Shown piece after piece: positions 31,617 through 51,848 of a stretch of DNA of 64,000 nucleotides; positions within the stretch are counted from its first letter, which is position 1, and each line of letters begins with the position of its first letter. Source of the DNA: Deltaproteobacteria bacterium. GTDB taxonomy: Bacteria > Myxococcota_A > UBA9042 > DTJE01. Below the pieces are notes generated by a model. That model was not told the origin of the DNA and searched no databases. It saw nothing but the letters and a program-made list of their open reading frames with translations. Position numbers and translations under genes: made by a program. The DNA is taken from positions 1 through 64,000 of the forward strand of contig JAKPOP010000016.1 of assembly GCA_029547805.1 (NCBI GenBank), read 5' to 3'.

Positions 31617-31659
31617 AAACGAAAGCGCTATTGCGTTTGATAGCGAGGCGCGCTATTCA
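31617..31659 (+). promoter_or_regulatory. Promoter with overlapping inverted repeats upstream of the Fic gene
   Basis: TTGCGT (31631-31636) and TATTCA (31654-31659) are 17 bases apart, just before the Fic start. An imperfect palindrome spans about 31617-31638 (AAACG ... CGTTT arms). CGCTAT, ATAGCG and CGCTAT again occur within the same stretch. Dyads overlapping both promoter boxes suggest an operator. The sequence is more AT-rich than its surroundings. Confidence 0.4.
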
Positions 31660-31686
31660 ACGGTGGTTGAATTCAGGGGGCTTCCC

Positions 31687-33124: not shown

Positions 33125-33197
<73 letters not shown>

Positions 33198-33249
33198 CCC
33201 GGGACTGATCGGAATCTTCGAACTCTTCTGGATCTCCGCATTCGGGAAC

Positions 33250-33436: not shown

Positions 33437-34081
33437 CTACGACCGACCGCCCAGTTCCCGGCGCCAGGACGACGACAACTCGAAAAGCGACGCCAGGGAG
33501 GCGGCCTCCTCCGGGACCGAGGCCCTACGGACCCGCGCCTGCAGCGCCCGGGCCACGCTCCAGTCCGGATGGGGTCGTTCCACGAGCGTCATCGCCATTC
33601 CCGCCGCCACCTCCCCCTCTCGCAGGACACGCAGGTACCAACCGCATCTCGCGGTCTCGAGGACCCGCCGGACCAGTCCTTCCAGATGCCAGCGCCGCTC
33701 CAGTTTCCAGCACGGGGTGCGGGGCTGCGTGATCTGGAGGAGGACCTCCCCCACCTGCCAGGTGTCCCCGATGCAGACCACGTCCTCATCGAGTCCTTCG
33801 ACCGCGAGATTCTCACCCAGGCCGCCGGGCTTCAGATCCTCGATCGCCCCCTCCTTCCTCCATGCCCGGTAGTGGGATGAAGCATACGCGAGCACGGCCT
33901 TGTCCGGCCCACCATGATGGACCAGATCCGCCTGACCATCCCCGAGCAGGCCGGTACGGGTGACTCGGACGGCCCCGAGCACGGCCTCCTTGAAGAGCCC
34001 GGTGACCCAGGGCTGGCCATTGTCCACGGTCCTGAGCATCCCCACGAAAACGCCGACCACGCGACCCTTCGTCTGGCTCAT
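33437..34081 (-). CDS. MOSC domain protein, YiiM-like
   Basis: MOSC (molybdenum cofactor sulfurase C-terminal) proteins handle sulfur or molybdenum cofactor, and YiiM-like members act on hydroxylated compounds. The 214-residue product has GDGQADLVHHGGPDKAVLAY, PGGLGENLAVEG, IGDTWQVGEVLLQITQPRTPCWKL and a Cys in the last motif that fits the proposed sulfide carrier. The ATG at 34081 gives the usual short N-terminus; a GTG at 34114 is possible. It is transcribed toward the tRNA and stands alone. The decayed IS copy begins about 110 bases upstream of its start. Confidence 0.82.
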   Translation of the reverse strand: MSQTKGRVVGVFVGMLRTVDNGQPWVTGLFKEAVLGAVRVTRTGLLGDGQADLVHHGGPDKAVLAYASSHYRAWRKEGAIEDLKPGGLGENLAVEGLDEDVVCIGDTWQVGEVLLQITQPRTPCWKLERRWHLEGLVRRVLETARCGWYLRVLREGEVAAGMAMTLVERPHPDWSVARALQARVRRASVPEEAASLASLFELSSSWRRELGGRS

Positions 34082-34189
34082 CGCGCCCACCGCGCGCGTG
34101 CCCTTGCCGTCCACCCGTACCCATCGTCCATGCTCCCTCCTCCAGCGTGCTCAGGTTGCCCTCCGGCCCCCCGAGCCCTCGCCATCAGG

Positions 34190-34704: not shown

Positions 34705-34750
34705 CCCTTCCGACTTCCTGTCAAGTCCACGCTTGCAGCCGATGGGCCGG

Positions 34751-34768
34751 TTGCCGTAATCTCGGCAA
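34751..34768 (+). promoter_or_regulatory. Perfect dyad upstream of the defence operon
   Basis: TTGCCG (34751-34756) and CGGCAA (34763-34768) form a perfect inverted repeat with a 6-base spacer, 60-80 bases before the first gene. A TTGCAG at 34733-34738 lies 18 bases before TAATCT (34757-34762), a weak possible promoter that the dyad would overlap. An operator for the HTH protein encoded next is plausible. Confidence 0.4.
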
Positions 34769-34827
34769 TCGTTGGAAACGGTCGGCATGGTCTACACCAG
34801 CCTGTGCCGCCCTGGAGGATGTTGCCC

Positions 34828-35028
34828 GTGATCTCAGAGGAGTCAATGACCTTGAAGGAGGTCGCGCGCCTCCTGAAGGTCGCCGAGAAGACGGTCAACA
34901 CCATGGCCCAGAACAAGGAGCTCCCGGCGTTCAAGGTCCGCGGCCAGCCGCACTTCCGCCGCGGGGACATGGACCACGGGGTCGAGGAGCAGAAGGCACA
35001 GGCCGCCGGGGAGGACTTCAATGAGTGA
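34828..35028 (+). CDS. Small HTH (excisionase/MerR-like) DNA-binding protein, MAD1-like
   Basis: The 66-residue product is a single winged-helix domain of the excisionase/BldC type: MTLKEVARLLKVAEKTVN is the helix-turn-helix and LPAFKVRGQPHFRRGDMD the wing. Its position as first gene of a methylase/kinase/ATPase operon matches the HTH regulator (MAD1) of methylation-associated defence systems. The GTG at 34828 has GGAGG nine bases ahead; the in-frame ATG at 34846 has AGAGGAG three bases ahead and would give 60 residues. The stop overlaps the methylase ATG by eight bases. Likely role: autoregulator of the operon. Confidence 0.75.
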   Translation: MISEESMTLKEVARLLKVAEKTVNTMAQNKELPAFKVRGQPHFRRGDMDHGVEEQKAQAAGEDFNE

Positions 35029-37123
35029 GCGGGCAACGGCGGGCAAGCGCCGCAAGCGCCATGAGGAGGTCGAATGGGCTGTTGCCGATGTCGTCGACAG
35101 CGACACCGGCTCGTTCGACGATGCTGATGAGGACGACGATGCCGAGTTCGTGCGCGACGGTTTTGTTCTGGATTTCATCTCCGGTACCAGGGAGATGAAG
35201 GAAACCCCCAAGGAACTCGTGCGCCAGCGCATCGCCCGGGCGCTGTTCCACGAGTACGGGATCTCGGTCAACGACATGGAGGCTGATTTCCCGGTGTCGG
35301 TTGGCGGACGCCGCCGTCGGGTGGACATCGCCATCTTCGCGCCGGGCAAACCCCACACCAGCGAGCACCTGCGCCGGGTCGTGGTCTGCCGCCCGGAGCC
35401 CAAGCAGAACAAGCGCGGCGCGGTGAAGATGCGCGACTACGAGCAGGCCGCCAAGGACATCGAGGAGATCAAGCCGTTCTTCGAAGAATGTGAGGAGTGC
35501 GAATACGGGCTATGGACCAACGGCCTCGAGTTCTTCTTCGTGCGGAAGAAGAAGTCGAAGTGGGAGGTCGATGCCGAGCCGATCGGTGACTGGCCGATGG
35601 GCGACGATTCAATTGGCACGCGCGACGTGGTGTCCCACGCGAAGTCGCGCCGCGCGCAACCCGACATGCTGCGCACCGCGTTCCGACGCTGCCACAACTT
35701 CATCCACGGCAACGAGGGAATGCCCAAGGACGCTGCCTTCTGGCAGTTCCTCTACCTCATTTTCTGCAAGATGCACGACGAGCGAGCGCCGCGCGAGCGT
35801 CGTCGTTTCTGGGCAGGGCCGCAGGAGCAGTTCACGGAGGCTGGACGCAAGGAGATCCAGAAGCGGATCGAGCCGCTCTTCAACGAAATCAAGCAGGAGT
35901 ACCGTTCGATCTTCCGCGGCAACGAGGAGATCACCCTTTCTCCGCGGGCTCTCGCCTTCATGGTGTCCGAACTGTCGAAGTACGAGCTAACCCGCATCGA
36001 CGTCGATGCCAAGGGCGCCGCGTATCAGGAAATCGTCGGCACCAACCTGCGCGGCGACCGCGGCCAGTACTTCACGCCACGAGGAGCCATCAAGCTCGTG
36101 GTCGAGATCCTCGACCCGAAGGAGCACGAGAAGGTTCTCGATCCCGCGTGCGGTACAGGAGGGTTTCTGGTTGCCACCCTCGCCCACATGATGGACCGCT
36201 TTCGCGAGGAGGCGAAGATCAGCGCCGGTGACGAGACCTCGGAGGAGTTCCAGTCCCTCCATGATCGGCTACGCGAGTATGCATCGAAGCAAGTTTACGG
36301 CTGCGACTTCGATCCGTTCCTGATCCGCGCCAGCCAGATGAACATGGTGATGGCTGGCGACGGCAAGGGTCATCTCTACAACATCAACTCGCTCGAGTTT
36401 CCCGAGGGCTACCTGCCAGGCGTCGAACCCGCGAAGAAGGACATTCCGTTCGGCTCGATAGACGTGGTGATGACCAATCCCCCCTTCGGCTCGGGCATTC
36501 CCATCACCGACGAGAACATCCTGCGACACTTCCACCTCGCGTCCATCTGGGAGCGGACCGAAGACGGCTCTTTCCGCGAGACCCCGAAACGCCAGAGCAG
36601 CGTTGCGCCCGAGGTGCTGTTCATCGAGCGCTGCCTCGATTGGCTCAAGCCGGGCGGCCGGATGGGCATCGTCCTGCCCGACGGCATCCTGGGCAATCCG
36701 GCCGCCGAGTACATCCGCTGGTGGATCCTCCGGCACGCCTGGGTTTTGGCGAGCGTGGACCTGCCGGTGGAGACCTTCATCGTCGAGGCGAACGTCAACA
36801 TCCTGACGAGCCTTCTGTTCCTGAAGAAGAAGCCGCCGGAGGTGATCCAGCGGGAGGCCATGAGCGGTGCGGCCGACTACCCGGTGTTCATGGCTGTGGC
36901 TGAGAAGGTCGGCTTCGATCGCCGCGGCAACGTCCTGTACAAGCGCTCGCCCGAGGGCGAGGAGCTGACCCGGGACACCGAAGAGATCGAGACCATCACG
37001 GTGGGAGGGCGCAAGGTGGCGCGCACCTTTCGCCGCAAGGAGAAGATCGTCGACAATGACCTGCCTGAGATCGCGGAGCGCTACCGCGCCTTCAGGCGGC
37101 AGCACGCGGAGCCGGGGAAATGA
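35021..37123 (+). CDS. N6-adenine DNA methyltransferase with N-terminal nuclease-like domain, MAD2-like
   Basis: The 700-residue product has an acidic N-terminus, then a domain resembling the N-terminal (PD-(D/E)xK) domain of type I restriction R subunits: VDIAIF with D102 and E126-x-K128. A linker leads to an HsdM-like N6-methylase: helical region at about 210-345, motif I DPACGTGG (374-381) for S-adenosylmethionine, and catalytic NPPF (486-489). The methylase would mark host DNA together with the S subunit encoded two genes later. It is coupled to the HTH gene by an 8-base overlap and to the next methylase by ATGA. Confidence 0.88.
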   Translation: MSERATAGKRRKRHEEVEWAVADVVDSDTGSFDDADEDDDAEFVRDGFVLDFISGTREMKETPKELVRQRIARALFHEYGISVNDMEADFPVSVGGRRRRVDIAIFAPGKPHTSEHLRRVVVCRPEPKQNKRGAVKMRDYEQAAKDIEEIKPFFEECEECEYGLWTNGLEFFFVRKKKSKWEVDAEPIGDWPMGDDSIGTRDVVSHAKSRRAQPDMLRTAFRRCHNFIHGNEGMPKDAAFWQFLYLIFCKMHDERAPRERRRFWAGPQEQFTEAGRKEIQKRIEPLFNEIKQEYRSIFRGNEEITLSPRALAFMVSELSKYELTRIDVDAKGAAYQEIVGTNLRGDRGQYFTPRGAIKLVVEILDPKEHEKVLDPACGTGGFLVATLAHMMDRFREEAKISAGDETSEEFQSLHDRLREYASKQVYGCDFDPFLIRASQMNMVMAGDGKGHLYNINSLEFPEGYLPGVEPAKKDIPFGSIDVVMTNPPFGSGIPITDENILRHFHLASIWERTEDGSFRETPKRQSSVAPEVLFIERCLDWLKPGGRMGIVLPDGILGNPAAEYIRWWILRHAWVLASVDLPVETFIVEANVNILTSLLFLKKKPPEVIQREAMSGAADYPVFMAVAEKVGFDRRGNVLYKRSPEGEELTRDTEEIETITVGGRKVARTFRRKEKIVDNDLPEIAERYRAFRRQHAEPGK

Positions 37124-39141
37124 GCGAAGAGCTTGAAGACCAGATCGAGGGTGAGGAGGAGAGCGACGAGGAGTCCGGTGGCGCGGATACCCTCATCGAC
37201 ATCCTGACCGGCGAGCCGATCGCGGCCTCGGCCAAGAACCGCTTGTTGCAGAAGGTGCTGCGGCAGCTCATCGAGAGCTATGGCTTCGACCGCAAGGACA
37301 TCAAGGCCAACTACCGGCTCCGTGCCAAGGGCAAGCGCCAGCAGTCGGTCGACATCGCCATCATGCGTCACGACACCGAGGCCTGCGACGAAAACGTCGA
37401 GCGAATCGTGGTCTGCGAGAACCAGAAGGCGAGAGAGAAGCTGCGAAGCCCTCACGAGGCGGCCGCCGACCTGCGCAAGCTGCACAGGAAGCTTGAGCTC
37501 TTCCCTTCGTGCCACCTGGGCATGTGGACCAACGGCCACGAAGAGTTTTTCGTTCGGGTCCAGGACACGACCTTCGAGACGAGGTTCCTCAACATCGGCG
37601 CGTGGCCAGCGCCGGGCGAGCGCACCGATGATGTGCTGCGCGAGGGCGGCACCATCCAGGTAGCCGCCGATCCCGAGGACCTCGAGGCTGCACTGGGCCG
37701 TTGCCACCAGTACCTGACCAAGAACCTCATGCTCGGCGGCGACGCCTTCAAGCCGCTCGGCGCGTTGCTCATCTCCAAGCTCTACGACGAGACACGGCCA
37801 GCGGGGCAAAGGCAGTTCTGGATCCGCGGTGACGAGCCCTTCACCGCCGAGGGGCAGGCGGCCATCCGCAGGCGTGTGGCCGCATGCTTCGAGGCGGTGC
37901 ACGTCTGGCAGCCCGAGGTGTTGAAGCACGGATGGGACCTGGATCACCTCGATGCCGCGCAGACGAGCAGGCTGGTGATGGAGCTGGCCCGCTACTCCCT
38001 CGCCGACAGCCTGCCGCGAAGTCGGACGATCGCCTACCGCTCGGCCGTGCGCTCGACGATGGACGGCAAGGAGGGCCGCTATCCGACGCCGCTCAACGTG
38101 GCCGAGATGGTGGTGCGGATGCTCGACCCCGGGCCCAACGACCGAGTGTTCGATGGGGCGTGCGGCACCGGGACATTCCTCGGCATGGCCGCGGCTCACG
38201 TCTTCGAGTCCTTCCTCTCGAGCGCCGGAGTGAAGCCGCACACCGCGACGGCGCAGCAGCTGCGAGAGGCCCAAGCCAAGACGGCCGCGTGGGCGCGCGA
38301 GCATGTGTTCGGCTGCGACATGGCCCCATCTCTCGTCGTGGCCGCGCGGTTGAACGTGCTGCTCACGGCGGGGCACCCCGGCAACATTTTCCGCATCGAC
38401 GCGCGGACCTTCCCCGACGGCGAGCTCGAGGATCAGGAGCGTGCAACGCGGTTGCTGCCTGAGGGGAGCATGGACATCGTGCTCACCAACCCCTGGTTCA
38501 GCACCAAGGACACGATCACCGACGAGGCGATCCTGAGGCGCCACGCGCTCGGCGAGAACTGGAACAGGACCGACGAGGGGACCTTCGTCAACAGCGGAAC
38601 CCCGAAGTCCGGCGGCGTGCCGCCTGAGGTGATCTTCCTGGAGCGCGCCTGGCGCTGGGCCAAGCCGGGCACGGGCCGCATCGCCATCCTGCTTCCCGAC
38701 GGGCTGCTCGGCAATCCAGGCGACGAGTACGTGCGCGCCTGGATCCTGCGCCACTGCGAGGTGCTCGCCAGCGTGGACCTGCCCGTCGAGCCGTTCAAGG
38801 TGACGCTGAAGGACTACCGCCTGACGCCGGCGTTGCCGAGCCTGCTCGTGCTTCGGCGCCGGAGCGAAGAGGAGCTCAAGCTCACTTCCTATCCCGACTA
38901 CTGGGTGTTCATGGCCGTCGTGAACCGCGCCGGTGTTGATGCGCGCGGCAACCTGCTCTTCGAGCGTGCGCCCGACGGCGAGGAGCTTGTGTTCGACGAC
39001 GAGGTCGTCGAGCGGGTACGCGTGGGCGGTCAGGTCGAGTCCCGGGTCGTTTCTCGCCGCCAGCGGCACATTGACGACGAGCTGCCGATCGTCGCCGAGC
39101 GCTACCGGAAGTTCGTCGCCGAGGGGAGGAAGGGACGATGA
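37120..39141 (+). CDS. Second N6-methyltransferase-like protein with altered NPWF motif
   Basis: The 673-residue product is a distant paralogue of the preceding methylase. It has a similar N-terminal nuclease-like domain (D78 in VDIAIM), but the expected E-x-K is changed to E100-N-Q-K103, so nuclease activity is doubtful. The methylase domain keeps motif I as FDGACGTG (344-351), while the catalytic motif is NPWF (457-460) instead of NPPF/Y. LLPDGLLGNPGDEYVRAWIL mirrors the equivalent segment of the first methylase. It may be a modified-specificity or non-catalytic partner forming a heterodimer. It occupies the position where, to my recollection, MADS loci carry mad3/mad4. Confidence 0.82.
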   Translation: MSEELEDQIEGEEESDEESGGADTLIDILTGEPIAASAKNRLLQKVLRQLIESYGFDRKDIKANYRLRAKGKRQQSVDIAIMRHDTEACDENVERIVVCENQKAREKLRSPHEAAADLRKLHRKLELFPSCHLGMWTNGHEEFFVRVQDTTFETRFLNIGAWPAPGERTDDVLREGGTIQVAADPEDLEAALGRCHQYLTKNLMLGGDAFKPLGALLISKLYDETRPAGQRQFWIRGDEPFTAEGQAAIRRRVAACFEAVHVWQPEVLKHGWDLDHLDAAQTSRLVMELARYSLADSLPRSRTIAYRSAVRSTMDGKEGRYPTPLNVAEMVVRMLDPGPNDRVFDGACGTGTFLGMAAAHVFESFLSSAGVKPHTATAQQLREAQAKTAAWAREHVFGCDMAPSLVVAARLNVLLTAGHPGNIFRIDARTFPDGELEDQERATRLLPEGSMDIVLTNPWFSTKDTITDEAILRRHALGENWNRTDEGTFVNSGTPKSGGVPPEVIFLERAWRWAKPGTGRIAILLPDGLLGNPGDEYVRAWILRHCEVLASVDLPVEPFKVTLKDYRLTPALPSLLVLRRRSEEELKLTSYPDYWVFMAVVNRAGVDARGNLLFERAPDGEELVFDDEVVERVRVGGQVESRVVSRRQRHIDDELPIVAERYRKFVAEGRKGR

Positions 39142-40550
39142 GGGAGAAGCAGATCAGAGTCGTCCCGAGTGCCTGGCTCGAGAAGGAGGGCCGACGGCTG
39201 GATTGCGGGCCATACCTGTCGGGTGCGATTGAAGCCAAGGTTTTGCTCGCCAAGATGAAGGCATCGAAGACGCCGCTGTGCAAACTCACCAAGGGAGGCA
39301 TGGCGGGCATCTTCAACGGCCCTCGCTTTCCTCGAGCCTACGTGCTCGATGCTGAATACGGAGTTCCGTTCCTCGGCAGCACCGACATTCTTCAGGCAGA
39401 CCTGAGCTTCGTGCCCCTGCTGGCGAAGAGACAGGTGCAGAATCAGCCGGACTTGTTGATAGACGAGGGCTGGACACTCATTTCTTGCTCGGGAACCGTC
39501 GGGCGCATGGCTTACTCACGTCCGGACATGAAAGGTATGGCGGGCTCTCAGCACTTCATGCGCGTGTTGGCCGATGATGGCAAGATTCGCTCTGGATACC
39601 TTCACGCCTACCTGAGCAGCAGGTTCGGTGTGCCGCTGGTGGTTGGAGGTACGTACGGCTCAATCATCCAACATATAGAGCCGGACCATCTCGCCAATCT
39701 CCCTGTTCCTCGCCTCGACGACCAGCTCGAGCGTCGGGCTCACGATTTGGTCACCCAGGCCGCCAAGCTCCGCAGCGAGTACCAGCAACAGGTCCAGCTT
39801 GCCACGAAGAAGCTCTTTGCCGCCGTTGGACTGAACGATATCACCTCCGGTGCGTGGCACAGCGACAATCCGGACTTGGGCTTCACGCGGAAGCTCGATT
39901 CACCGGCGTCTCTCAGGGCTCTCAACTTCAACCCGAGGTTCCAGCAGCTCTGTGACACGATCCGGGCGAAGTCGTGGAGGCCTCTTGGCGAGCTGTGCAA
40001 ACCGGGCACGCTCAAGCGTGGTGGCCGCTACAAGCGGATCGATGCGGAACCGGAATACTCCTATCAGCTCATTGGGCAGAAAGAGATCTTCTGGGTGCGG
40101 CCGGAGGGCCGTTGGATTGCAAAGAAGTCGGTCGGTACTGATGTGCTCGTCGAGCCTGGCACAACTCTCGTTGCTGCCCGCGGTACGTTTGGTGAGTCTG
40201 AGCTCTACTGCCGATCGGAGTTCGTCTGGGGCAAGGACGCCGAGCGTGCCTACTCCGAGGACTTCCTTCGAGTGATCGCCGATGGCGACAAGATACCTCC
40301 GGGCTGTCTCTTTGCCTTCATGCGATCTGAAACGACATTCCGAATGCTCCGCTCGGTGTCGATGGGAACGAAGTTGCAGGACCATCATCCACGGTTCTTG
40401 CACGAGCTTCCCGTCCCGTATCCCGACAGGCGACAACGCGACGAGATCCACGATCTGGTGACCGACGCCTACGACAAGCGGCATCGGTCGGTGAAGCTCG
40501 AGGACGAGGCCGTAGCCATGGTCGAGGCTGCTATCGAAGGAGGTGCCTAA
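39138..40550 (+). CDS. Type I restriction-modification specificity (S) subunit, MAD5-like
   Basis: S subunits read the DNA target and direct methylase or nuclease partners. The 470-residue product has two target-recognition domains separated by a coiled coil (about 200-230): YGVPFLGSTDI, SGTVGRM and GSIIQHIEPDHLANLPVP in the first half, and SYQLIGQKEIF, AARGTFGESELYCRSEF and HHPRFLHELPVPYPD in the second, the usual twofold layout. It overlaps the preceding methylase by ATGA and abuts the kinase gene (TAATG). The recognised sequence cannot be predicted. Confidence 0.9.
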   Translation: MREKQIRVVPSAWLEKEGRRLDCGPYLSGAIEAKVLLAKMKASKTPLCKLTKGGMAGIFNGPRFPRAYVLDAEYGVPFLGSTDILQADLSFVPLLAKRQVQNQPDLLIDEGWTLISCSGTVGRMAYSRPDMKGMAGSQHFMRVLADDGKIRSGYLHAYLSSRFGVPLVVGGTYGSIIQHIEPDHLANLPVPRLDDQLERRAHDLVTQAAKLRSEYQQQVQLATKKLFAAVGLNDITSGAWHSDNPDLGFTRKLDSPASLRALNFNPRFQQLCDTIRAKSWRPLGELCKPGTLKRGGRYKRIDAEPEYSYQLIGQKEIFWVRPEGRWIAKKSVGTDVLVEPGTTLVAARGTFGESELYCRSEFVWGKDAERAYSEDFLRVIADGDKIPPGCLFAFMRSETTFRMLRSVSMGTKLQDHHPRFLHELPVPYPDRRQRDEIHDLVTDAYDKRHRSVKLEDEAVAMVEAAIEGGA

Positions 40551-43500
40551 TGGCCAAAGTCATCGCCATCGGTCAGCCTGCCAACGAGTCGGAGCGTCAG
40601 GCCATCGCCTACCTGCGGGACAACCTCTCCAACGCGTTCACGGTCATCCACAACTTCGAGCTGAGGCAGGGCCACGAGCTGTACGAGATCGACATCGCCC
40701 TCTTGTGCCCGCACTGCGTATTCGTCATCGACGTGAAGGGGACGCGGGGGCACGTCGACATCTACGGCAGCCAATGGTATCCGGAGGGCCGCGCCCCCTA
40801 CCATTCGCCGCTCGCCATCCTGCGCAACCACGCCAAGGCGCTCAAGACTCTGATCTGCGATCAGTACCCGGCGAATGACGCAATGGGCCGCGTCTGGGTC
40901 GACGCGGCCGTGTTGATGACGGCACCCGATGCACTCGTCGAGGACCACGGAGGTCAGGACGGCCCCTCGGTCGCGTACCTCAAGAAGTGCACCGCCTTCT
41001 TCCAGGACAAGGGGCGAGTGCGCCCGGGGTGCTCGACGGACATCCGTGCCCAGCTCGGACAGATCGAGAAGGCCATCGTCGGCCGCGCCAAACCCCAGAG
41101 CGCCCCTCCCTGCTACGGCAACTGGCAGGTCGAGGAGAAGCTTGGCGGCACCGACCGCTACACCGAGTACCGCGCCAGGCACACGCTGATCGGGACCAGG
41201 CGCGGCGGCACTGCGCGGCTGCGCGTGTACCAGGTGGATCCGTACTTGCCGGAGGAGCAGCGCAAGCGAGAACTCGACCGCATCGGAAACGCGTTCCGGG
41301 CCGTGGCCTCGATCCCCGGCCATCCCAACATCCTGCCTGTTCGCGACTTCTTTCCCACCGAGGCCGAGGACCGACTCGTGCTCGTGACCGGCGACGTGGC
41401 AGGCCACGCCTTGCGCCAGCACATCAAGAAGAGCGGGCTGGCGCTCACGTTCGACCAGAAGATCGCCGTGATCCGAGACGTGCTCGCCGCGCTTGACCAC
41501 GCCCACCGCGCGGACCCGCAGGTCGTCCACCGCAACCTGAACCCGGACGCCGTGATCGTGAGCACCACTGGCCACGCCCTGATCTGTGGCTTCGACTACG
41601 CGCGCTCTGGCAGGGACCGGAGGAGCACCATCGCCCAGGACATCGTCGACGAGATCGACCCGAGGTACCAGGCCCCCGAGTGCCACAAGGACCCGTCGAA
41701 GGCAAGCGTGGCCTCGGACCTCTACTCGGCAGGGCTCGTGTTTTACGAGTTGCTGGTGGGCGAGCTGCCGTGGTCCTCCATCGACGACATGATGGAGAAG
41801 GACGGCGTGTTCCCGGTGAAGCCGTCCGAACAGAAGCCGGATCTTCCCGCCGAGTTGGACGGCTGGCTCCAGGCGCTCTGCTCGTTCGACGTGGAGGACC
41901 GGCCCTCGTCCGCAGCCGTGGCTCTCTCGAGGTTCAACGAGATCGTGGGACCTGACCCGAGGGAGGCCGGAAAGCCGAAGCCGGGTGAGAGCCTGCCGCC
42001 CGTTGTGGCGCGGCCAGAGATCGACTACCGGGCGCTCAAGCGCGGGGAGGAAATCGCCAACCGGTTCCGTATCGAGGAAAAGCTCGGCGAGGGAGGTTTC
42101 GCAGCGGTGTACCGGGTCTTCGACTCCTTCGCGGACACGACCCGGGTTCTCAAGATCATCGTCAAGGATCGGCGATCAACCTTCCAGCGCCTCAAGCAGG
42201 AGTACTGCGTCCTCGAGAAGCTCAAGCCCCACCCGAACGTCGTTCGCGTGGTATGGGCGGACAAGCTTCCCGACGAGACCCCGTACCTCGTCTTCGAGTA
42301 CATTGCCGGCACCGGCGTCGACGACCTGCTCACGAGCGGTTCGGTCTCGCTCGAGGACGTCAAGCGCATCGGCCTCGACACCCTGACAGGGCTCGAGTAC
42401 CTGCACGCGAGCGGCGTCTTCCACCGCGACATCAAGCCGTCGAACCTGCTCTGGACCGACCAGGGGGTGCGCATCATCGACTTCAACGTGGCGGTGCGTC
42501 AGGACGACGAAGAAGCCGGGGCAGGCGGCACGCGACGCTACATCCCCCCGGACCTCGAGTTGTCCGATTCGTTGACGTTCGAGGAGAAGGTTGACTGGGA
42601 CCTGTACTCGCTCGGCATCACGCTCTATGAGTGCGCCACCGGCTGGAAGTACCCGTGGGTCGAGCCGATGCCGCCGGTGAAGGTCCTGCCCAGGGATCCG
42701 CGGGACTACGTCTCGGACATGAGCCCGGAGCTCGCGCAGGTCATCCTCCGCGCGATTGCGCCGAGCCGGGTCGACCGCTTTCTCTCGGCGACCGAGTTCC
42801 GGGAGGCGCTCGCGCGAGTGGTCAAGGTTCGAGTCACGCCCCCGGCGCCGGTGGTCACGATTACGCCCAAGCCGGACGCCGGGGTGCTGGCACGTTTCCA
42901 GCCCCACAAGCCCAACTTCAACCCGTTCGTCACGCACCTGCTCACGATGTACAGCCAGAGCCCGACGACCAACGCGGGCACGCGCGGGCTGGATGACGTC
43001 GGGCGCGAGACGTACATTCCCACCTTGCTTGACGACAGGCTGCGGCCGGCCGTGCTCGCCGGCGAGTTTCGTCTGGTCGCTGTCACAGGGAACGCGGGCG
43101 ACGGCAAGACCGCCTTCATCAACCGGATCGAGGATGCAGACGAGGTGAAATCCACCCTGGTCCGGACGATGAACGGCTCGGAGTTCACCCTCCGAGGTCG
43201 TCGCTTCCTCACCAAATACGATGGCAGTCAGGACGAGGACACCAAGGTCAACGACGAGGTGCTTCAGGAGTTCTTGGGGCCGTTCGCGGGAACGGATTCG
43301 ATCACCTGGCCTGGCGACGAGACGCGGATCATCGCGATCAACGAGGGCCGCCTCATTGATTTCCTGACCGAGCACGAGGACCAGTACCCGCGCCTGCGGG
43401 ACCTGGTCATGGCCGGCCTTGCCGGTGCCCCTGCCTCGGATGGCGTCGTCGCGGTGAACCTCAACCTGCGCGCTGTCGTGGCTGACCCGCCCGGTGTGCC

Positions 43501-44692: not shown

Positions 44693-46356
44693 TGGCAATC
44701 AAGGGAAAGGACCGCGAGTTCCGACTCCGACAACTCTCATACATCGACTTCAAGCCGGTGAACATGGACCGCGTGCTGACGATGCTGTTCCCTCGTTTGC
44801 GCTTCGGGGGCTACGGTACCCGCCGGCCGCCACGCAAGAACGACCTCACCGTCTCTGATTTTGCTCGCGAGTACGTGAAGGATCCGAAGCAGTTTGCTGG
44901 GTTCGCCGAGCATCAGGACCTCGTCGAGCGATGGATCGAAACGGACCTGATGGATATGGTCAACCGGGGCCGGCCGAACCAGGCGATCGCCGCCCCGAGG
45001 CCGCTGCACGGCAACACCTACAAGTTCCGGAACGCACGTCACGCGCGTGACTACGGCGCCGCCGAGCAACTCTACTGGATGCTCTACTACGCTCGTGGTG
45101 GAAGGGGACAGGTGGCTCGCGAGGCACTCACGCGCTTCTTCTTCGCGGGCATCGATCTGCATACCGACAAATACGATCCGTCCGCGTCGGTGGATGTCGA
45201 GACGCAGGCGCTGCTCCACTTCGACCAGCAGGTTTCCGTGGACATGCGCGACTCCCAGGAGCCCGAGCGCTTTCCTCCACTCTGCATTGGACAGGTGGAT
45301 CTCCTGGCCGACGATACGCTCAGGCTTCTTGCCTACGAGCCGTACATCCCCCGCACGGTCCTGGTCGAGTACCTGAAGACGCTGTTCGCCTTCCACCTCG
45401 GGCTCTACCATCTCCGACTCATCAAGCTCCTGCCCGAACTTGTGCGGCGGCGAAGCGCGGACCCGACTTGCGCATTCGAGGTGTGCCCCGTGTCACCCGA
45501 TCAGATGGAAGCTCACGGTGGTTGCCCGTATCGTGTCTATCTTCTGGCTGACCTCGGCAACGACCTTGACAGCCACATGGCCGCCCTGGCACGGCACAGC
45601 GCGGATGTGCACTACCGCCGCATTCCGACCTACGTCCAGTCGCACTACCTGTTGCGCAAGCTCGATGAGCTCGCAAACTACCTCAGCCATCGAGTGGGCA
45701 AACTACCGACTCCGGCGAACGGCTTCTTTGGCATCGGCAACTTGCTCGCCTTGCTCGAGCCGCCACATGCCGCCGATCGAGAAAGCTACTTCAAGGCCAG
45801 GCTCGCCGGACTGCTGGAGGACACGGGGGGCAATGCCCGAGAGGAGATCGATCCCGAGATCAAGCGCATCACCGAAATGGGCCTCAGCGATCTCGACATG
45901 TACGTCGAGATTCTGATGGCCCTTCGGGGTTCCTACCATCGTCGGTACATCACCGAGTTTCTGGACTCGGTGTTCAAGCGCGGAGACGCCGGTATCATGC
46001 ACCAGTCCAAGGCCAGCCCGCGAAGGTTCGCTGTCGGCAGTCAACTGCTCGAGGTCCTCCTCCAGATCGCGGTCCTGCGCTCGTCTGGTTCCGGCTTCTA
46101 TACGCGTGCATTGCGCATCGACGAGTTGCTTGTCTTCCTGCGTGAACGCTACGGCATCTACATTGATCGACTGCCGTCGGGAGATGGCTTCGGCACCGCA
46201 AGCATCAAGGACCTGGCAGCCCTGAGGCTGAACGTCCAAAGCTTCCGCTGCCGCCTTCGGGAGATCGGCTTCTTCCGAGATCTGTCAGATGCCTATATCA
46301 CGCAGACGATCATGCCTCGCTACACGATCGCGAAGACCAACGGAGGTGCGCCATGA
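44692..46356 (+). CDS. Defence-operon protein of unknown function, MAD7-like position
   Basis: The 554-residue product has no motif I recognise. It is mixed alpha/beta with no signal peptide, no transmembrane helix and no P-loop. The N-terminal 120 residues are basic and aromatic (YIDFKPVNMDRVLTMLFPRL). The C-terminal third is helical with SPRRFAVGSQLLEVLLQIAVL and LRIDELLVFLRERYGIYIDRLP segments that look like a winged-helix domain. It abuts the kinase gene (TGATG) and overlaps the ATPase gene by ATGA, so it is an obligate part of the system. Placement between kinase and HerA-type ATPase matches MAD7. Confidence 0.7.
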   Translation: MAIKGKDREFRLRQLSYIDFKPVNMDRVLTMLFPRLRFGGYGTRRPPRKNDLTVSDFAREYVKDPKQFAGFAEHQDLVERWIETDLMDMVNRGRPNQAIAAPRPLHGNTYKFRNARHARDYGAAEQLYWMLYYARGGRGQVAREALTRFFFAGIDLHTDKYDPSASVDVETQALLHFDQQVSVDMRDSQEPERFPPLCIGQVDLLADDTLRLLAYEPYIPRTVLVEYLKTLFAFHLGLYHLRLIKLLPELVRRRSADPTCAFEVCPVSPDQMEAHGGCPYRVYLLADLGNDLDSHMAALARHSADVHYRRIPTYVQSHYLLRKLDELANYLSHRVGKLPTPANGFFGIGNLLALLEPPHAADRESYFKARLAGLLEDTGGNAREEIDPEIKRITEMGLSDLDMYVEILMALRGSYHRRYITEFLDSVFKRGDAGIMHQSKASPRRFAVGSQLLEVLLQIAVLRSSGSGFYTRALRIDELLVFLRERYGIYIDRLPSGDGFGTASIKDLAALRLNVQSFRCRLREIGFFRDLSDAYITQTIMPRYTIAKTNGGAP

Positions 46357-49300
46357 GCAACGGTTTTCGGGCACTGTCCTCCGTCGATCTGACTCGTGCG
46401 GTTGAGCAGTTGCTTCTTCCGCGACTGGCAGCGACGTTGCGCGAGCGCGGAGCCGGACACTGCATGCGGGTGTCGGATCTGGATGGTGAGTTGATGATCT
46501 CGCTGGCCAAGGGTCTTCGGCGCGAGGTGCCGGAAGCCCAGGTTTTCATTCTGGCCAACGGTTCGACCGCGCCTGACGGAGATCTGCTCATCTCCTCGAC
46601 CAAGCTCGTCGAGCTCCGCAATCCGCTTCCGAACGGAGATCTGCGCCCGCCGCTGTGTGTGTTCTTGCCCGCCAACCTGAGGACGAGCGCTGAAGATTCG
46701 TTCGGCGTCGCCACGTTCCAGGAGTTCCCGGTCAGGGACTCCTACGAGTCCTTGCGCAATCAGTTGCTCGAGCGGATCCCGCATTCGTTGCTGGGCTACG
46801 TTCGTGACGCGCTCCAGCTCCTTCGGGAGCAGCGGTGGCGCTGGGCCAGCGACGTTGCCCAGGTACGCTACCTGCTCTGCGCCCATGCGAACGGCAACGA
46901 CGGTGAAGCATTTGGCGGAGCCTTGTACGAGCTCGGCCTTGTCCCGGACTTCAAGCTCTTTGTCGATCCGACGACGGCATACGGCCGCGTCCGTAGGAAC
47001 CTCGAGTGCGTCAGGCGACTCACCGATGGTGACGCCTCGGTACGCGCGCGTGTTCTCGGGCTGGATCTGGTGAACAAGGGGCTGCGTCGGAGACTGGCCG
47101 AGTACCTGGTGGAGACAGGAGTTGAAGACCCGGTGTTATGGACCCGGAACATCGTTCTCTACCGCCGCAACTGGGATCTCTCGTTCGACAAGTGGGAGTT
47201 TGCCTCCGAGACCTCGCCCGACAAGATCGCGTTCGTGAAGGTCGAGACAGATTTGCCGGTGGTTGCTGACGATGAAACCGATGAGCGCCTTGTGGACTTC
47301 ATCGGCCAGCAGGTGCTTGCACCGAACGAGCGACGCAAGCTCAATGTCGTGATCGAGGTTTCGCCCCATCCTGGCCAGGTTCAGGGGCTCGATCACTTCA
47401 CCGTTCAGATCATCTCCAAGGACACGGGCCCGGTGGGGGTGGTCCACAAGGTGCCTGTTTGGAAGACGAACCGCACCACCTGCAACGTGGCCTTCTCGAA
47501 GCTCAACAAGGTCGAATTCGAGGAGGGCTGGTACAACATCCGCGTGCAGCCCTGGACCGCTGACGGAGATCCGATCCCCATCGACGAGCCGCCCGGCTCC
47601 CCCGCCAGGCGCTCGAACGAAAGCGAGCCCTTCTACGTGCTGCCCGAAGGCCAGATCGAGGAGGAGCCACCTCAGCGGGCGGTACCCAAGGCCGAGAGCG
47701 TGGAACACGCACGCATCGATCGCCAGTTCACGGCAATTCTTCAAGGCCGGGAGCCACAGGACGTGGTGCTGGAGAGTGTGGGTTGGGCCCAGAAGAACAC
47801 CCAGCGCCGTTCGACCGCGCACGACACCATCGAGGCGAAGTTCGGCAAAGAGGGTACCTTCCAGATCGCGGTCGCGAGGTGGCTCAAGATCGTCGAGGAA
47901 CGGATCCTCGCGAGTCCCGAGCGCCCGGTGAGCTGGCGGATGCAGATTCACATGGGACAACCGCAGACGCCAACAGGCGACATTAGCGAATGGCCGGCGT
48001 CGGCCGCCGCGGTGCGGAGCTTCCTCGATGCGCGCACGGAGTACTTCGCCACAGTCACGCAGAACAAAGGCCTCGTCACCCAGGGGCTCGACTTTCTCGC
48101 TGCGAAGGAGAAGGTCCTCGCCTACGCCTCCGCCTACGTCGATTTGCTGAAGGACCTCTCGGCCAAAGTGGAGCGCGAATCAGGCAGGGATCAGCTCAAG
48201 GCCATGGTTGCGCTCCGTGTTGCCCTGGCAGTGGACACTATTCGTCTCGTCATCGAGGACTACCGCGGTCACGTTCGCGAAGCGGCGGTCATCGCGCCGA
48301 CGCATCCTCTGCGGGTCCTGTGGCAACTCGGCTGGGCCCAGCTCGGCTCGGCCTGGGTAAAGGCCACGACGAAGGGGCCGGAAGAGCACGTCACACCGGC
48401 ACGGGATGCTCTCCTGCGCGGGATCTCCTCCGTGAACTTCCCGGCGATGCTTCCGATCAGCGATGGCCGTGTGTTCGTTGCGGTCGACAACATCCATCCC
48501 TTCTGGTCGCTCTATGCACCCGCGACCGAGGAGGATCCACGAGGGCTCCTCGGCGACGTCTGTGCAGCGCTCGGGCTCCCAGAGCCGTCCATCGGTGGGC
48601 TCGCTGTCACCGGTGAAGTGATCGCATCCAGGATCGAGCGCTACCTCGTGCAGCACCCCTATGTCCGGACTCTCGCAATCAACGCGTTCAACCCAGGGCG
48701 CGCGAAAGTGCTAGCCGACGCCCTTGTGGCTCTTCAGAAGCAGGAGCCGTTCAAGGACCTTCGCTACGACCTGCGCCTGTTCGTGCCCGATCCCGACGCA
48801 CCTGGAGTCGGCGAGTCCATCACGGAGCTGCTTGCTGGAGAAGGAACGCTGGCTGGCGAGGCCTTCTCAGTTCCGACGGGCAGCCATGTCTTCCCCAAGC
48901 TGAACGTTGCCATTCGAGGCACCGCCGATTTCCGCGAAGACCCCTCACGCTATCGGTCCCACCTGAGCTTCCTCTTTGACGTCTTCCCGCCCGAGGAAGT
49001 CGGCGCCGGAAAACCATTCCGGCTCGAACGTACGATCCCTCTGCACGGGCTCGTCCAAGACTTCACGGTGCGATACCGGGATGACGAGACGGGTACTGGA
49101 TGGCAGCGTCAGCCCCGCCACGGGACCGCGACGATGATCGCGGGTGCCGAAGAGACGAGCATGCTCCTCGGGCAGCTCCCCGCGCTGCTCTCCGCGGCTG
49201 TTGCGACCGTTGCTCGATCGACTCCCGATTTCGAGTCGCGACCGATCATCCACCTCGAGCTCGATCCGGACGAGCGTGCATTGATCAGCGAGGTCCACGA

Positions 49301-51848
49301 CACCAGCGACTGGGTCTTCACCATCGACCGCAATATGGGGATTGAGTTCTTCGACCACGGCGGGCGCCGCGATAGGCCGGACTACCTCATCGACTACACG
49401 CCCTTCGGGGTTCCCGATCACGGCCACCGCCTTGTGATCAGTTCGAGGTCGCTCGCCGAGCTTGAGGCCATCCTGCGACCGGTACTGCAGCAGTACGGTC
49501 TGGACGCCGAGGGTCGCCAGGCAGTCCTCATCCTGGAGCAGCTCCGTTCTCTGTCAGGCCGCTTGGCATTGAAGCTGGTCTCCTCTCCCACGGCACGCGC
49601 GGAAGCGCTGGGCATGGCTCTGGCTCGCCTATACCTGGAGCACCAGGGAGCGCTTCGAAACCAGATCGTGGTACCGCTTGACGCCCACCTCGAGCTGTTT
49701 CAATCCGCCAAGAAGCAGGCAGAAGCCATTGGCGACGAGGTCACGTTGCGCCGAACTGATCTGGCCCTGTTCGACCTCGACGTCTCCCGTCGAACCATCA
49801 CATGCAATCTTGTCGAGGTGAAGTGCTACGCCCAGAAGCTCGGGCTCAGTGGCTACGGCCAGGTGAAGGAGAACATCACCGAGCAACTCAACCAGAGCGA
49901 GCGCATCCTCCAGAAGCACTTCGATCCGCATCGGACCAAGCCGGACCGGCCCGATCGACTGCTCAAGACGCGTGAGCTGGCCACGCTCCTCGAGTTCTAC
50001 CTCGACCGGGGTTTGCGTTATCACCTCATGGACCCCGTAGCTGGGGAGGAGGCCAGAACCTTCCTCGACGTCCTCGAGGCCGGATACACCCTGCGCTTCA
50101 CGCGAAGCGGGCTGGTGTTCGATTTCGACAAGCCCGGAACCGAGCCACCCGAACATGAGGTCGGCATCGAGTTCCACCGCATCGGCAGGGATCTCATTCA
50201 CGCCCTGGTGGAGCGCCCGGGTTCGGCGCCGTCTTCGGATGACGGCGGCGATGGAGGGGCCGGCGATGAACAGGCTGCGCCGGTGGCGTTGACCAGCGCA
50301 CCGATTCCGAAGCTCAGCTCGGCAGCATTCCTGGTCGAGGAGCGGCAGCGGGTCACCTCGGTTGACCTCGGTTGGAACGGGGAGCATCGCCCTGTTACAG
50401 AAAAACCAGCCGCGCATGAACCGGACGACACGACTGCCTCTGCTCCCGGCGATTCGCCGGTCAACGACGGAGACTCTTCCGGCGGAAGTTCAAGTGTGGC
50501 CGATGCTGCCCCCGTAGCCGAGGAGCAGGCGGTGCCACGCCGGAAGCCTGCGCCGACGGAAGCGCCCAAGGAACCTGAGCCTCAATGCGAAGATGAAGCC
50601 ATCGGGCCAGCGATCACCTCACGAGAGCCTGGAGCGCCAGCCTCGGGTCTGCCATGCGACGTGGTGATCGGCGTCAACGCACCGTCCCCACAATTCGGCG
50701 TGCTTGGCGAAGTGGTGGGCCGCAAGATCGCGCTAGACCTCAACCAGACGCACACCATCAGCCTGTTCGGCGTGCAAGGCGGCGGCAAGAGCTACACCCT
50801 TGGCAGCATTGTCGAGATGGCCTGCATGCCGATCCCCGGGGTGAACGTGCTGCCCCACCCTCTGGCTTGCGTCATCTTCCACTACAGCGCGACGCTCGAC
50901 TACAAGCCCGAGTTCACCTCGATGGTCTTGCCGAACACGGCTACCGCCGAGGTTGCGGCGTTGTGGGAACGCTACGGCGCCAAGCCTCACGGTTTGGAGG
51001 ACGTGGTCATCCTGGCGCCGGCTGCCAAGGTCTCGGAGCGGAGAGCCGAATACCCGGGCATCCAGGTGTTGCCCATCGCCTTCGCCGCCTCGGAGTTGAA
51101 AGCGGCTCACTGGAAGTTCCTTATGGGGGCAGTCGGCAGCCAGAGTATGTACATCCGGCAGCTTGGCCTGATCATGAAGAAGCTACGCGGCGAGATCACG
51201 CTCGATGGGCTTCGCCAGGAGGTCGAGCACTCGGGTCTGTCGGACAACCTGAAGGGTCTCGCGCTCATGCGGCTGCGTTTCGCCGAAGAGTACATCGATG
51301 ACAACTGCCGGCTCACGAATGTGCTGCGGCCCGGTCGCCTGGTAATCGTGGACCTCAGAGACGAGCTGGTAGAGAAGGACGAAGCGCTCGGTCTCTTCGT
51401 GGTGCTCCTTCAGATGTTCTCCGAGACCACCTTCGAGGGGCGGGCCTTCAACAAGCTCGTCGTGTTCGACGAGGCCCACAAGTACATCGACAATCCCGAC
51501 CTCGTCGCCGGGCTCATCGAGGTCGTCCGCGAGATGCGCCACAAGGGCACGAGCATCATGGTCGCCTCGCAGGATCCCCCCTCCGTACCGACGTCGCTGA
51601 TCGAGCTGTCGACGCAGATCATCATGCACAAGTTCAACTCCCCCGCCTGGCTGAAGCACGTCCAGAAGGCAAATGCCGCGCTCGACGAGCTCACGCCCGC
51701 GAAGCTTGCCGAGCTTGGGCCGGGCGAGGCCTACGTCTGGAGCAGCAAGTCGACCGACGACGCCTTCACCAGGGGCGCGGTCAAGGTGCGGTGCCGACCC
51801 CGCGTCACGCTCCACGGTGGTGGGACGAAGACGGCGGTCGAGGAGTAG
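46353..51848 (+). CDS. Giant HerA/FtsK-type ATPase with central nuclease-like segment, MAD8-like
   Basis: The 1831-residue product carries a HerA-type ATPase in its last 400 residues: Walker A GVQGGGKSYTLG (about 1472-1483), Walker B LVVFDEAHKYID (about 1702) and MVASQDPPSVP as sensor region. HerA-type ATPases translocate DNA and work with nucleases. Around residues 1135-1155 a predicted strand pair with LFDLDVS and LVEVKCYAQ resembles a PD-(D/E)xK site (E-V-K). The first 1100 residues are unassigned, with an acidic Ser/Asp/Glu-rich linker at about 1290-1430. It is the last and largest gene of the operon, and likely the DNA-acting effector. Confidence 0.82.
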   Translation: MSNGFRALSSVDLTRAVEQLLLPRLAATLRERGAGHCMRVSDLDGELMISLAKGLRREVPEAQVFILANGSTAPDGDLLISSTKLVELRNPLPNGDLRPPLCVFLPANLRTSAEDSFGVATFQEFPVRDSYESLRNQLLERIPHSLLGYVRDALQLLREQRWRWASDVAQVRYLLCAHANGNDGEAFGGALYELGLVPDFKLFVDPTTAYGRVRRNLECVRRLTDGDASVRARVLGLDLVNKGLRRRLAEYLVETGVEDPVLWTRNIVLYRRNWDLSFDKWEFASETSPDKIAFVKVETDLPVVADDETDERLVDFIGQQVLAPNERRKLNVVIEVSPHPGQVQGLDHFTVQIISKDTGPVGVVHKVPVWKTNRTTCNVAFSKLNKVEFEEGWYNIRVQPWTADGDPIPIDEPPGSPARRSNESEPFYVLPEGQIEEEPPQRAVPKAESVEHARIDRQFTAILQGREPQDVVLESVGWAQKNTQRRSTAHDTIEAKFGKEGTFQIAVARWLKIVEERILASPERPVSWRMQIHMGQPQTPTGDISEWPASAAAVRSFLDARTEYFATVTQNKGLVTQGLDFLAAKEKVLAYASAYVDLLKDLSAKVERESGRDQLKAMVALRVALAVDTIRLVIEDYRGHVREAAVIAPTHPLRVLWQLGWAQLGSAWVKATTKGPEEHVTPARDALLRGISSVNFPAMLPISDGRVFVAVDNIHPFWSLYAPATEEDPRGLLGDVCAALGLPEPSIGGLAVTGEVIASRIERYLVQHPYVRTLAINAFNPGRAKVLADALVALQKQEPFKDLRYDLRLFVPDPDAPGVGESITELLAGEGTLAGEAFSVPTGSHVFPKLNVAIRGTADFREDPSRYRSHLSFLFDVFPPEEVGAGKPFRLERTIPLHGLVQDFTVRYRDDETGTGWQRQPRHGTATMIAGAEETSMLLGQLPALLSAAVATVARSTPDFESRPIIHLELDPDERALISEVHDTSDWVFTIDRNMGIEFFDHGGRRDRPDYLIDYTPFGVPDHGHRLVISSRSLAELEAILRPVLQQYGLDAEGRQAVLILEQLRSLSGRLALKLVSSPTARAEALGMALARLYLEHQGALRNQIVVPLDAHLELFQSAKKQAEAIGDEVTLRRTDLALFDLDVSRRTITCNLVEVKCYAQKLGLSGYGQVKENITEQLNQSERILQKHFDPHRTKPDRPDRLLKTRELATLLEFYLDRGLRYHLMDPVAGEEARTFLDVLEAGYTLRFTRSGLVFDFDKPGTEPPEHEVGIEFHRIGRDLIHALVERPGSAPSSDDGGDGGAGDEQAAPVALTSAPIPKLSSAAFLVEERQRVTSVDLGWNGEHRPVTEKPAAHEPDDTTASAPGDSPVNDGDSSGGSSSVADAAPVAEEQAVPRRKPAPTEAPKEPEPQCEDEAIGPAITSREPGAPASGLPCDVVIGVNAPSPQFGVLGEVVGRKIALDLNQTHTISLFGVQGGGKSYTLGSIVEMACMPIPGVNVLPHPLACVIFHYSATLDYKPEFTSMVLPNTATAEVAALWERYGAKPHGLEDVVILAPAAKVSERRAEYPGIQVLPIAFAASELKAAHWKFLMGAVGSQSMYIRQLGLIMKKLRGEITLDGLRQEVEHSGLSDNLKGLALMRLRFAEEYIDDNCRLTNVLRPGRLVIVDLRDELVEKDEALGLFVVLLQMFSETTFEGRAFNKLVVFDEAHKYIDNPDLVAGLIEVVREMRHKGTSIMVASQDPPSVPTSLIELSTQIIMHKFNSPAWLKHVQKANAALDELTPAKLAELGPGEAYVWSSKSTDDAFTRGAVKVRCRPRVTLHGGGTKTAVEE

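What the first reader, a model, noticed from the sequence alone, without database searches (positions are those of the whole stretch)
34705..51848. Seven-gene MADS-like defence operon with a second methylase in place of expected genes
Seven genes overlap or abut at every junction (8-base overlap, ATGA, ATGA, TAATG, TGATG, ATGA). Content and order (HTH, N6-methylase, ..., S subunit, kinase, unknown, HerA-type ATPase) match my recollection of the methylation-associated defence system mad1-mad8. Here only one gene, a methylase paralogue, separates the mad2-like and mad5-like genes, where I recall an AAA ATPase (mad3) and mad4. If confirmed this is a distinct subtype, or a separate system sharing modules.
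Basis: partly seen in the sequence, partly recalled or inferred. Interest (0 to 1): 0.9.

Follow-up and report, generated by a model that had tools for sequence, protein, structure and literature searches.

The report
MADS phage-defence operon with two methylases
This is a recurrent subtype of the known bacterial anti-phage system MADS in which a second, consistently altered DNA-methylase gene takes the place where other versions carry two different genes, suggesting that the system marks its own DNA with an unequal pair of methylases.

Summary
Confirmed: seven touching genes, window 34846-51848, order mad1-mad2-mad2'-mad5-mad6-mad7-mad8. It belongs to MADS: five of seven proteins pass NCBI's curated MADS cut-offs; mad2' misses by 0.5 bit, mad1 scores 59.7 against 80. 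Missing mad3/mad4 is not peculiar: of 80 related loci holding mad2 and mad5, 30 have mad3-mad4, 27 have mad2' in the same slot, 23 have neither, none has both. The second methylase is what matters. Mad2' is a discrete family (52-91% identical to the window's; the other Mad2-type hits 35-39%) in about ten phyla by record title, including 10 of 5,426 complete E. coli genomes, nine of them annotated "MAD2" twice. All 26 full-length rows read NPWFS where Mad2 reads NPPFG, yet keep cofactor- and base-pocket residues; dN/dS is 0.09. Best reading: a Mad2-Mad2'-Mad5 heteromer, a MADS counterpart of the non-canonical type I methylase PacII M1M2S (m6A plus m4C). Activity, base choice and complex formation are untested; five relatives lack an intact mad2', so it is not indispensable. 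New variant of a known kind; the founding MADS paper could not be read.

The parts
34846..35028 (+). mad1: 60-aa excisionase/HTH-type DNA-binding protein, likely regulator
   Evidence: NF047737 59.7 bits, below cut-off 80; TIGR01764 30.8 bits; PADLOC mad1 E 0.003
35021..37123 (+). mad2: N6-type DNA methylase (HSDR_N_2 + N6_Mtase), motif IV NPPF
   Evidence: NF047738 1019 bits; PF02384 and PF13588; NPPFG in 85 of 86 Mad2 rows
37120..39141 (+). mad2': diverged methylase paralogue, motif IV NPWF
   Evidence: NF047738 719.5 bits; 35-37% identity to mad2; NPWFS in 26 of 26 full-length rows, the window's included; AF2 model pLDDT 85.4 matches type IIB and type I methylase subunits
39138..40550 (+). 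mad5: two-TRD specificity (S) subunit
   Evidence: NF047740 574 bits; AF2 model pLDDT 88 with two long helices and match to PacII S, Z 16.5 over 160 residues; most variable gene between near-identical operons
40550..44692 (+). mad6: NERD + Ser/Thr kinase protein, PglW-like N-terminal part
   Evidence: NF047741 758 bits, PglW 239 bits below cut-off 990; PF00069, PF08378
44692..46356 (+). mad7: weakly SspG-like protein
   Evidence: NF047733 629 bits; PADLOC mad7 E 9e-118, SspG E 6e-7
46353..51848 (+). mad8: large HerA-like ATPase with weak DndH/SspH similarity
   Evidence: NF047742 221 bits; PADLOC mad8 E 1.3e-44, DndH E 3e-7, SspH E 3e-5, HerA E 1e-4
33125..33199 (+). tRNA-Ala(GGC) upstream of the operon; context only, no second copy of its 3' end found in the window

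Best explanation
The operon is a horizontally moving MADS anti-phage system of a two-methylase subtype. Shown: gene content and order; the separate Mad2' family with invariant NPWFS; its slot between mad2 and mad5, exclusive with mad3-mad4 in the loci examined; purifying selection on mad2'; exchange of mad5 between otherwise near-identical operons. Inferred: Mad2, Mad2' and Mad5 assemble as an M1-M2-S trimer. Mad5's two target-recognition domains would read a bipartite site, Mad2 would methylate adenine in one half, and Mad2' would occupy the other half with a remodelled pocket, either adding a different mark or giving asymmetric recognition. DNA without the mark would be attacked by the restriction arm Mad6 (kinase with a nuclease-related domain), Mad7 and Mad8 (weakly SspG- and DndH/SspH-like), with Mad1 regulating. 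My odds: MADS subtype 0.95; heteromer with Mad2 and Mad5 0.65; Mad2' itself catalytically active 0.5.
For: MADS identity. Discrete family: 27 loci at 52-91% best-segment identity against 53 at 35-39%, one side of a branch at 100 (26 full-length rows). Motif: NPWFS 26 of 26 against NPPFG 85 of 86. Y321, D345, G349, T350, G351, N457, P458, F460 and F559 are kept in 26 of 26, while near them Mad2's Q320, F322, R325, G326, P459 and G461 became R, P, L, N, W and S in 26 of 26, and G352 became T in 25 of 26. Slot exclusivity: 0 of 80 with both. Mad2' was never seen without mad2 (27 of 27; mad2 is in pieces in L021 and L036 and cut by a contig end in L037). Overlap of 4 or 1 bases with mad2 in 22 of 27. 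dN/dS of mad2' 0.093, of mad2 0.090, window against L020. Fold: RM.BsaXI Z 27.9, PacII M subunit Z 22.7; Mad5 to PacII S Z 16.5. Mad5 swap: E. coli GmF052 vs EC11 42.5% in mad5, 96.3-100% in the other six. Precedent for two different M subunits with one S: PMC9613975 (abstract, passages, section 7).
Against: No experiment and no complex model. Five relatives inside the same Mad7 clade (L059, L068, L073, L085, L095) keep the other genes without intact mad2', two of them (L059, L085) with mad3-mad4, so Mad2' is not indispensable there. PacII M2 has NPPY, not NPWF, so the m4C analogy does not carry over by motif. NPWF may abolish catalysis. The pocket changes are 7 of 39 sites at which the two families are each conserved but differ; whether they cluster more than chance was not tested. 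No methylome was examined. Counts come from the best 80 of 298 hits ranked by similarity to Mad2' and are not prevalence.
Confidence: 0.62

Rival explanations
1. Mad2' is a non-catalytic pseudo-methylase: it partners Mad2 on Mad5 as a structural and DNA- or cofactor-sensing half, so only one strand or half-site is methylated. (This overlaps the best explanation, which leaves activity open; the odds are not exclusive of it.)
For: The catalytic motif is changed the same way in 26 of 26. EcoP15I (PMC4490356, abstract) shows a methylase dimer with one subunit recognising DNA and the other methylating.
Against: N457, P458, F460 and most cofactor-site residues are invariant in 26 of 26; a dead site would be expected to drift.
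Confidence: 0.4
2. Mad2' is an independent second methylase that modifies its own sites without forming a heteromer with Mad2.
For: It is a full-length M-type subunit with its own N-terminal domain.
Against: One specificity gene per operon in the 27 loci with mad2' (in two pieces in L036), and mad2' is not seen without mad2 in any of them.
Confidence: 0.15
3. Mad2' is a redundant duplicate of mad2 with no special role.
For: Loss in five relatives; RefSeq names both genes MAD2.
Against: Only 35-37% identical to mad2 in the same operon, single origin, dN/dS 0.05-0.16 in six pairs, invariant altered motif.
Confidence: 0.08

Closest known systems
MADS (methylation-associated defence system; NCBIfam NF047733, NF047737, NF047738, NF047740-NF047742; PADLOC mad1-mad8)
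   Same: mad2, mad5, mad6, mad7, mad8 in the same order; RefSeq applies these names to the same seven-gene order in E. coli
   Different: No mad3/mad4; a second, diverged methylase in their place
Non-canonical type I R-M methylase M1M2S, PacII (PDB 7vru, 7vs4; PMC9613975)
   Same: Two different M-type proteins plus one two-TRD S subunit; M1-like motif NPPF
   Different: PacII M2 has NPPY and makes m4C; Mad2' has NPWF and belongs to the MAD2 family; no HsdR helicase subunit among the seven proteins (Mad2 and Mad2' do carry an HSDR_N_2-type N-terminal domain)
BsaXI, type IIB R-M (PDB 8w0p, 8w2p, 8w2q)
   Same: Closest solved relative of Mad2' by sequence profile and by fold; methylase with an N-terminal domain and a separate S subunit
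   Different: One RM polypeptide species (recalled), no kinase or ATPase restriction arm
Ssp/Dnd phosphorothioation systems (SspG, DndH, SspH)
   Same: Weak similarity of Mad7 and Mad8 to their subunits
   Different: MADS uses a methylase, not phosphorothioation
BREX / Pgl
   Same: Mad6 N-terminal part is PglW-like
   Different: PglW score 239 against cut-off 990; no PglZ hit in the NCBIfam or Pfam lists

Membership tests
MADS | Core proteins Mad2, Mad5, Mad6, Mad7, Mad8 over curated cut-offs | tested here: met
   1019/720, 574/400, 758/460, 629/410, 221/175 bits
MADS | Mad1 HTH protein over curated cut-off | tested here: inconclusive
   59.7 bits against cut-off 80, right size and place
MADS | Gene order mad1-mad2-...-mad5-mad6-mad7-mad8 in one operon | tested here: met
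   same order in RefSeq-named E. coli loci
MADS | mad3 and mad4 (recalled as part of the eight-gene founding system; layout seen in L016) | tested here: not met
   No room for them: mad2, mad2' and mad5 overlap one another. But 50 of 80 related loci also lack them and RefSeq applies MADS names without them, so I do not treat them as defining
MADS | Methylation-dependent protection against phage | not testable with these tools
   needs a bench test
Non-canonical type I R-M (M1M2S) | Two different M subunits and one S subunit encoded together | tested here: met
Non-canonical type I R-M (M1M2S) | M2 with motif NPPY | tested here: not met
   NPWFS in 26 of 26; NPPY stated in PMC9613975
Non-canonical type I R-M (M1M2S) | HsdR restriction subunit | tested here: not met
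   no HsdR helicase hit among the seven proteins in Pfam or NCBIfam (PADLOC lists for mad2 and mad6 were cut at 25 rows); only the HSDR_N_2 N-terminal domain on Mad2 and Mad2'. Elsewhere in the genome not searched
Non-canonical type I R-M (M1M2S) | m6A on one strand and m4C on the other | not testable with these tools
   needs a methylome
BREX / Pgl | PglW, PglX and PglZ family proteins | tested here: not met
   PglW 239/990 bits, PglX models 24/900 and 18.9/400 on mad2; no PglZ hit in Pfam or NCBIfam lists

The most novel reading that the evidence does not exclude
Mad2' is an active methylase whose tryptophan-modified pocket (NPWF) acts on a different base or in a different state than Mad2 does, so this MADS subtype writes an asymmetric two-mark self code through one S subunit; the code is re-keyed by swapping mad5, and the slot can be switched between mad2' and mad3-mad4 as alternative ways of completing the same machine.
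Probability: 0.3. Interest if true: 0.75.

Novelty: new variant of a known kind. Interest (0 to 1): 0.55.

Why it matters
How MADS restricts unmarked DNA is listed as unknown in a 2026 paper (PMC12904381, passages). A subtype with an unequal methylase pair gives a handle: Mad2 alone, Mad2 with Mad2', and Mad2 with mad3-mad4 can be compared in one scaffold. It also shows that NCBI's MAD2 model lumps two families (9 of 10 further Mad2' proteins tested pass the 720-bit cut-off), which hides the subtype. NPWF is a fully conserved change of one residue inside a well-studied catalytic motif, so its effect on catalysis or base choice can be tested directly.

Tried and rejected
Considered and rejected: (a) BREX/Pgl membership. 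(b) A recent tandem duplication of mad2: identity is only 35-37% and the family has one origin in the tree. (c) Integration at tRNA-Ala with a repeated 3' end downstream: no second copy of the 20-base tRNA end in the window with up to 3 mismatches. (d) An active PD-(D/E)xK nuclease in the N-terminal domain: in Mad2 the candidate ExK is often E-P-N, and the alignment shows no such acid in the 26 Mad2' rows, so I make no nuclease claim. (e) Reduced internal symmetry of Mad5 as a sign of an unequal M pair: half-to-half scores were lower in mad2' loci (median 115, n=25, against 148, n=27, with mad3-mad4 and 136, n=21, with neither), but relatedness confounds this and I drew no conclusion. (f) A first three-state labelling of loci used too loose a threshold; its counts are discarded in favour. 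(g) A sigma-70 promoter scan upstream of mad1 found nothing.

Literature: Maestri et al. 2024 (Cell Host Microbe, doi 10.1016/j.chom.2024.07.005), the founding MADS paper, is not held. I could not check whether it already shows two-methylase loci, and the eight-gene layout is recalled (the Piscinibacter plasmid L016, shows it). Paper searches listed no paper that, from its title, abstract start or the passages I opened, describes a second MADS methylase; the search for NPWF with methyltransferase returned 0 papers. That library lacks most subscription papers and all bioRxiv preprints. The single-protein viral scan found nothing. Plasmids (9 records, at most 36.3% identity) and phages (1 record, 29.8%) held no close Mad2' relative at E 1e-30 or better.
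Full report
WHAT IS THERE. The first gene is a 60-aa HTH protein starting at 34846; 34705 is not a start codon. NCBIfam names five proteins as MADS above curated cut-offs: Mad2, Mad5, Mad6, Mad7 and Mad8. The second methylase scores 719.5 bits on the MAD2 model (cut-off 720), and the HTH protein 59.7 on MAD1 (cut-off 80). PADLOC agrees for mad2, mad5, mad6, mad7 and mad8 and gives mad1 only E 0.003. Mad6 has a NERD domain and a protein kinase domain. Mad7 has weak SspG similarity and Mad8 weak DndH, SspH and HerA similarity.

THE HOST. The genome has 4.08 Mb in 32 contigs. The operon has 63.8% G+C against 70.3% and 70.5% in its flanks. The near copy L020 (titled Patescibacteria) shares the operon as far as the locus reaches, but its upstream 7.7 kb has no match in the window; its downstream side is not held. 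The operon therefore looks horizontally acquired. MADS is rare in this phylum: Mad7 occurs in 4 of 377 genomes, and of these four loci only the window's has a second methylase.

Absence of mad3-mad4 is ordinary. I scanned genome contigs with a five-row methylase alignment; 298 stretches encoded a relative and the best 80 were kept. With three loci fetched by place and four plasmid loci, and with two duplicate loci dropped (L014, L015), 80 loci have both mad2 and mad5. Thirty carry mad3 and mad4, 27 carry mad2', 23 carry neither, 0 carry both (bit-score thresholds 100 for mad2', mad2 and mad3, 60 for mad4 and mad5). Five further loci without a scored mad5 are outside the count (L084, L090, L091, L093, L096; L093 has mad3-mad4, L084 mad3, the others none). 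The window itself is not counted. Because hits were ranked by similarity to Mad2', these numbers are not prevalence.

MAD2' IS A FAMILY. In one search the 27 mad2' loci are 52-91% identical to the window's Mad2' (best segment) and the other 53 only 35-39%. The tree of 112 rows puts all 26 full-length Mad2' on one side of a branch with support 100 (quick method, midpoint root, long branches flagged, so its root and depth are open). Record titles place the 27 in Pseudomonadota, Thermodesulfobacteriota, Acidobacteriota, Chloroflexota, Gemmatimonadota, Bacillota, Poribacteria and Omnitrophota, plus one 'Patescibacteria' title and one unclassified; 14 of the 27 titles are not MAGs, 13 are, and MAG labels may be wrong. 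One more locus came from IMG/VR (L100), next to what look like phage tail and lysis genes (my reading of the sequences). In E. coli the gene is in 10 of 5,426 complete genomes, the same 10 that carry this Mad7; a Mad7 DNA probe from an Aeromonas locus lacking mad2' found none, which says nothing about more diverged MADS. In the four E. coli loci opened the operon lies beside a tRNA-Leu and an integrase gene. Nine of the ten records carry 'mads2' twice; the tenth has 'N-6 DNA methylase' twice.

THE ALTERED SITE. Motif IV reads NPPFG in 85 of 86 Mad2 rows (the other is L021, whose mad2 is in pieces) and NPWFS in 26 of 26 Mad2' rows; four E. coli Mad2' proteins, three of them opened as separate alleles or copies, agree. 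Per-site counts (after dropping Mad2 rows L017, L018, L019 and L021) show Y321, T323, P324, D345, G349, T350, G351, N457, P458, F460 and F559 invariant in Mad2'; D400 is kept in 25 of 26. Near them Mad2's usual Q320, F322, R325, G326, P459 and G461 are R, P, L, N, W and S in 26 of 26 Mad2' rows, and G352 is T in 25 and A in 1. These are seven of 39 sites at which both families are conserved but differ; 116 sites are conserved and the same. In PacII M2 the second proline of the motif is P287, which forms an aromatic cage with F180, Y288 and F373, while N285 and P286 hold the target amino group (PMC9613975, passages). The equivalence of W459 with P287 rests on the N-P-x-[FY] motif and is my inference. 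The pattern looks to me like pocket remodelling with the cofactor site kept, rather than decay. dN/dS of mad2' is 0.093 between window and L020 (mad2 0.090) and 0.054-0.162 in five other pairs.

FOLD AND PARTNERS. The Mad2' model (pLDDT 85.4) matches RM.BsaXI best (Z 27.9, 411 residues, rmsd 3.4), then a Listeria methylase (2f8l), CamA and type I M subunits, including PacII's (Z 22.7, 372 residues, rmsd 4.1) (Foldseek; sequence profile). The Mad5 model (pLDDT 88) has two domains each followed by a long helix, and matches PacII S (Z 16.5, 160 residues, rmsd 2.5), with longer but looser matches to other S subunits. Mad5 has no Pfam hit. Mad5 is the exchanged part: between E. coli GmF052 and EC11 it is 42.5% identical while the other six are 96.3-100%, and between window and L020 it is 39.9% while mad2, mad2', mad6, mad7 and mad8 are 88.6-94.4% (mad1 not compared; mad8 over 924 codons). 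Mad2' overlaps mad2 by 4 bases in 18 of 27 loci and by 1 in 4; in the other 5 no such overlap was found, among them L021, L036 and L045, which have other ORFs in between.

MECHANISM. I propose that Mad2 and Mad2' sit on the two helices of Mad5, as M1 and M2 do on PacII S, and mark a bipartite site asymmetrically. The restriction arm (Mad6-Mad7-Mad8) then acts on DNA without the mark. The first part rests on homology, operon coupling, exclusivity and never finding mad2' without mad2 in the loci seen; the second part on the known MADS assignment and weak Ssp/Dnd similarity. Whether Mad2' methylates, and which base, is open: I put activity at about even odds.

RESULTS AGAINST. In the Mad7 tree (61 rows) the mad2' loci plus L059, L068, L073, L085 and L095 form one side of a branch (support 99/94), and the presence of mad2' needs 5 changes. 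L068 and L073 keep short remnants of mad2', and L085 has a 35-bit remnant downstream of its mad3-mad4. So mad2' has been lost or replaced while the rest stayed; Mad2 can presumably work without it. This argues against an absolute requirement, and it suggests that the slot can be switched (inference from one weak remnant and two clade placements, L059 and L085).

NOVELTY. MADS is known, and two 'MAD2' genes in a row are already in RefSeq. What I did not find described (searches; listings and some passages only) is the second gene as a separate, altered family that excludes mad3-mad4. The founding paper could not be read, so this claim is provisional.

Noticed in passing
window 31594-32850 (+); L045 8723-9847; L068 11959-13080; L018 29376 onward: A Fic-domain gene lies upstream of the window's operon; Fic-like genes (by sequence similarity to it) are inserted inside the MADS operon between mad2 and mad2' in L045 and between mad2 and a mad2' remnant in L068 (74% identical to each other, 33-34% to the window's), and one follows mad8 and a PP2C phosphatase in L018.
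   Followed up: partly
L036 8877-10004; L040 8379-9488; L079 12030-14158; L080 12058-14025; L089 12079-14046: The stretch between mad2 and mad5 takes other inserts too: a protein with a HExxH-type peptidase motif (L036, L040), an ATPase-like ORF plus a second ORF (L079), and a 655-aa ORF that by eye looks like an AlbA/RecG-type ATP-binding protein (L080, L089) (identities by eye only). It looks like a variable cargo slot.
   Followed up: no
L017, L019 (plasmids), L042: Loci with a MADS-type methylase and S subunit but no mad6-mad8 found in the stretch held; L042 also has mad1, mad2' and only a short mad5 piece.
   Followed up: no
L100 1-8000: A two-methylase MADS operon in an IMG/VR contig directly follows ORFs that look like phage tail and lysozyme genes.
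   Followed up: partly
L101-L104, around the operon: In E. coli the operon sits in a tRNA-Leu island with an integrase on one side and transposase remnants and a contact-dependent inhibition pair on the other.
   Followed up: no
L021, L036, L045, L098: mad2, mad2' or mad5 are split into pieces in these loci; sequencing error or real decay was not distinguished.
   Followed up: no
window 33437-34114 (-): A MOSC-domain gene lies between the tRNA-Ala and mad1.
   Followed up: no
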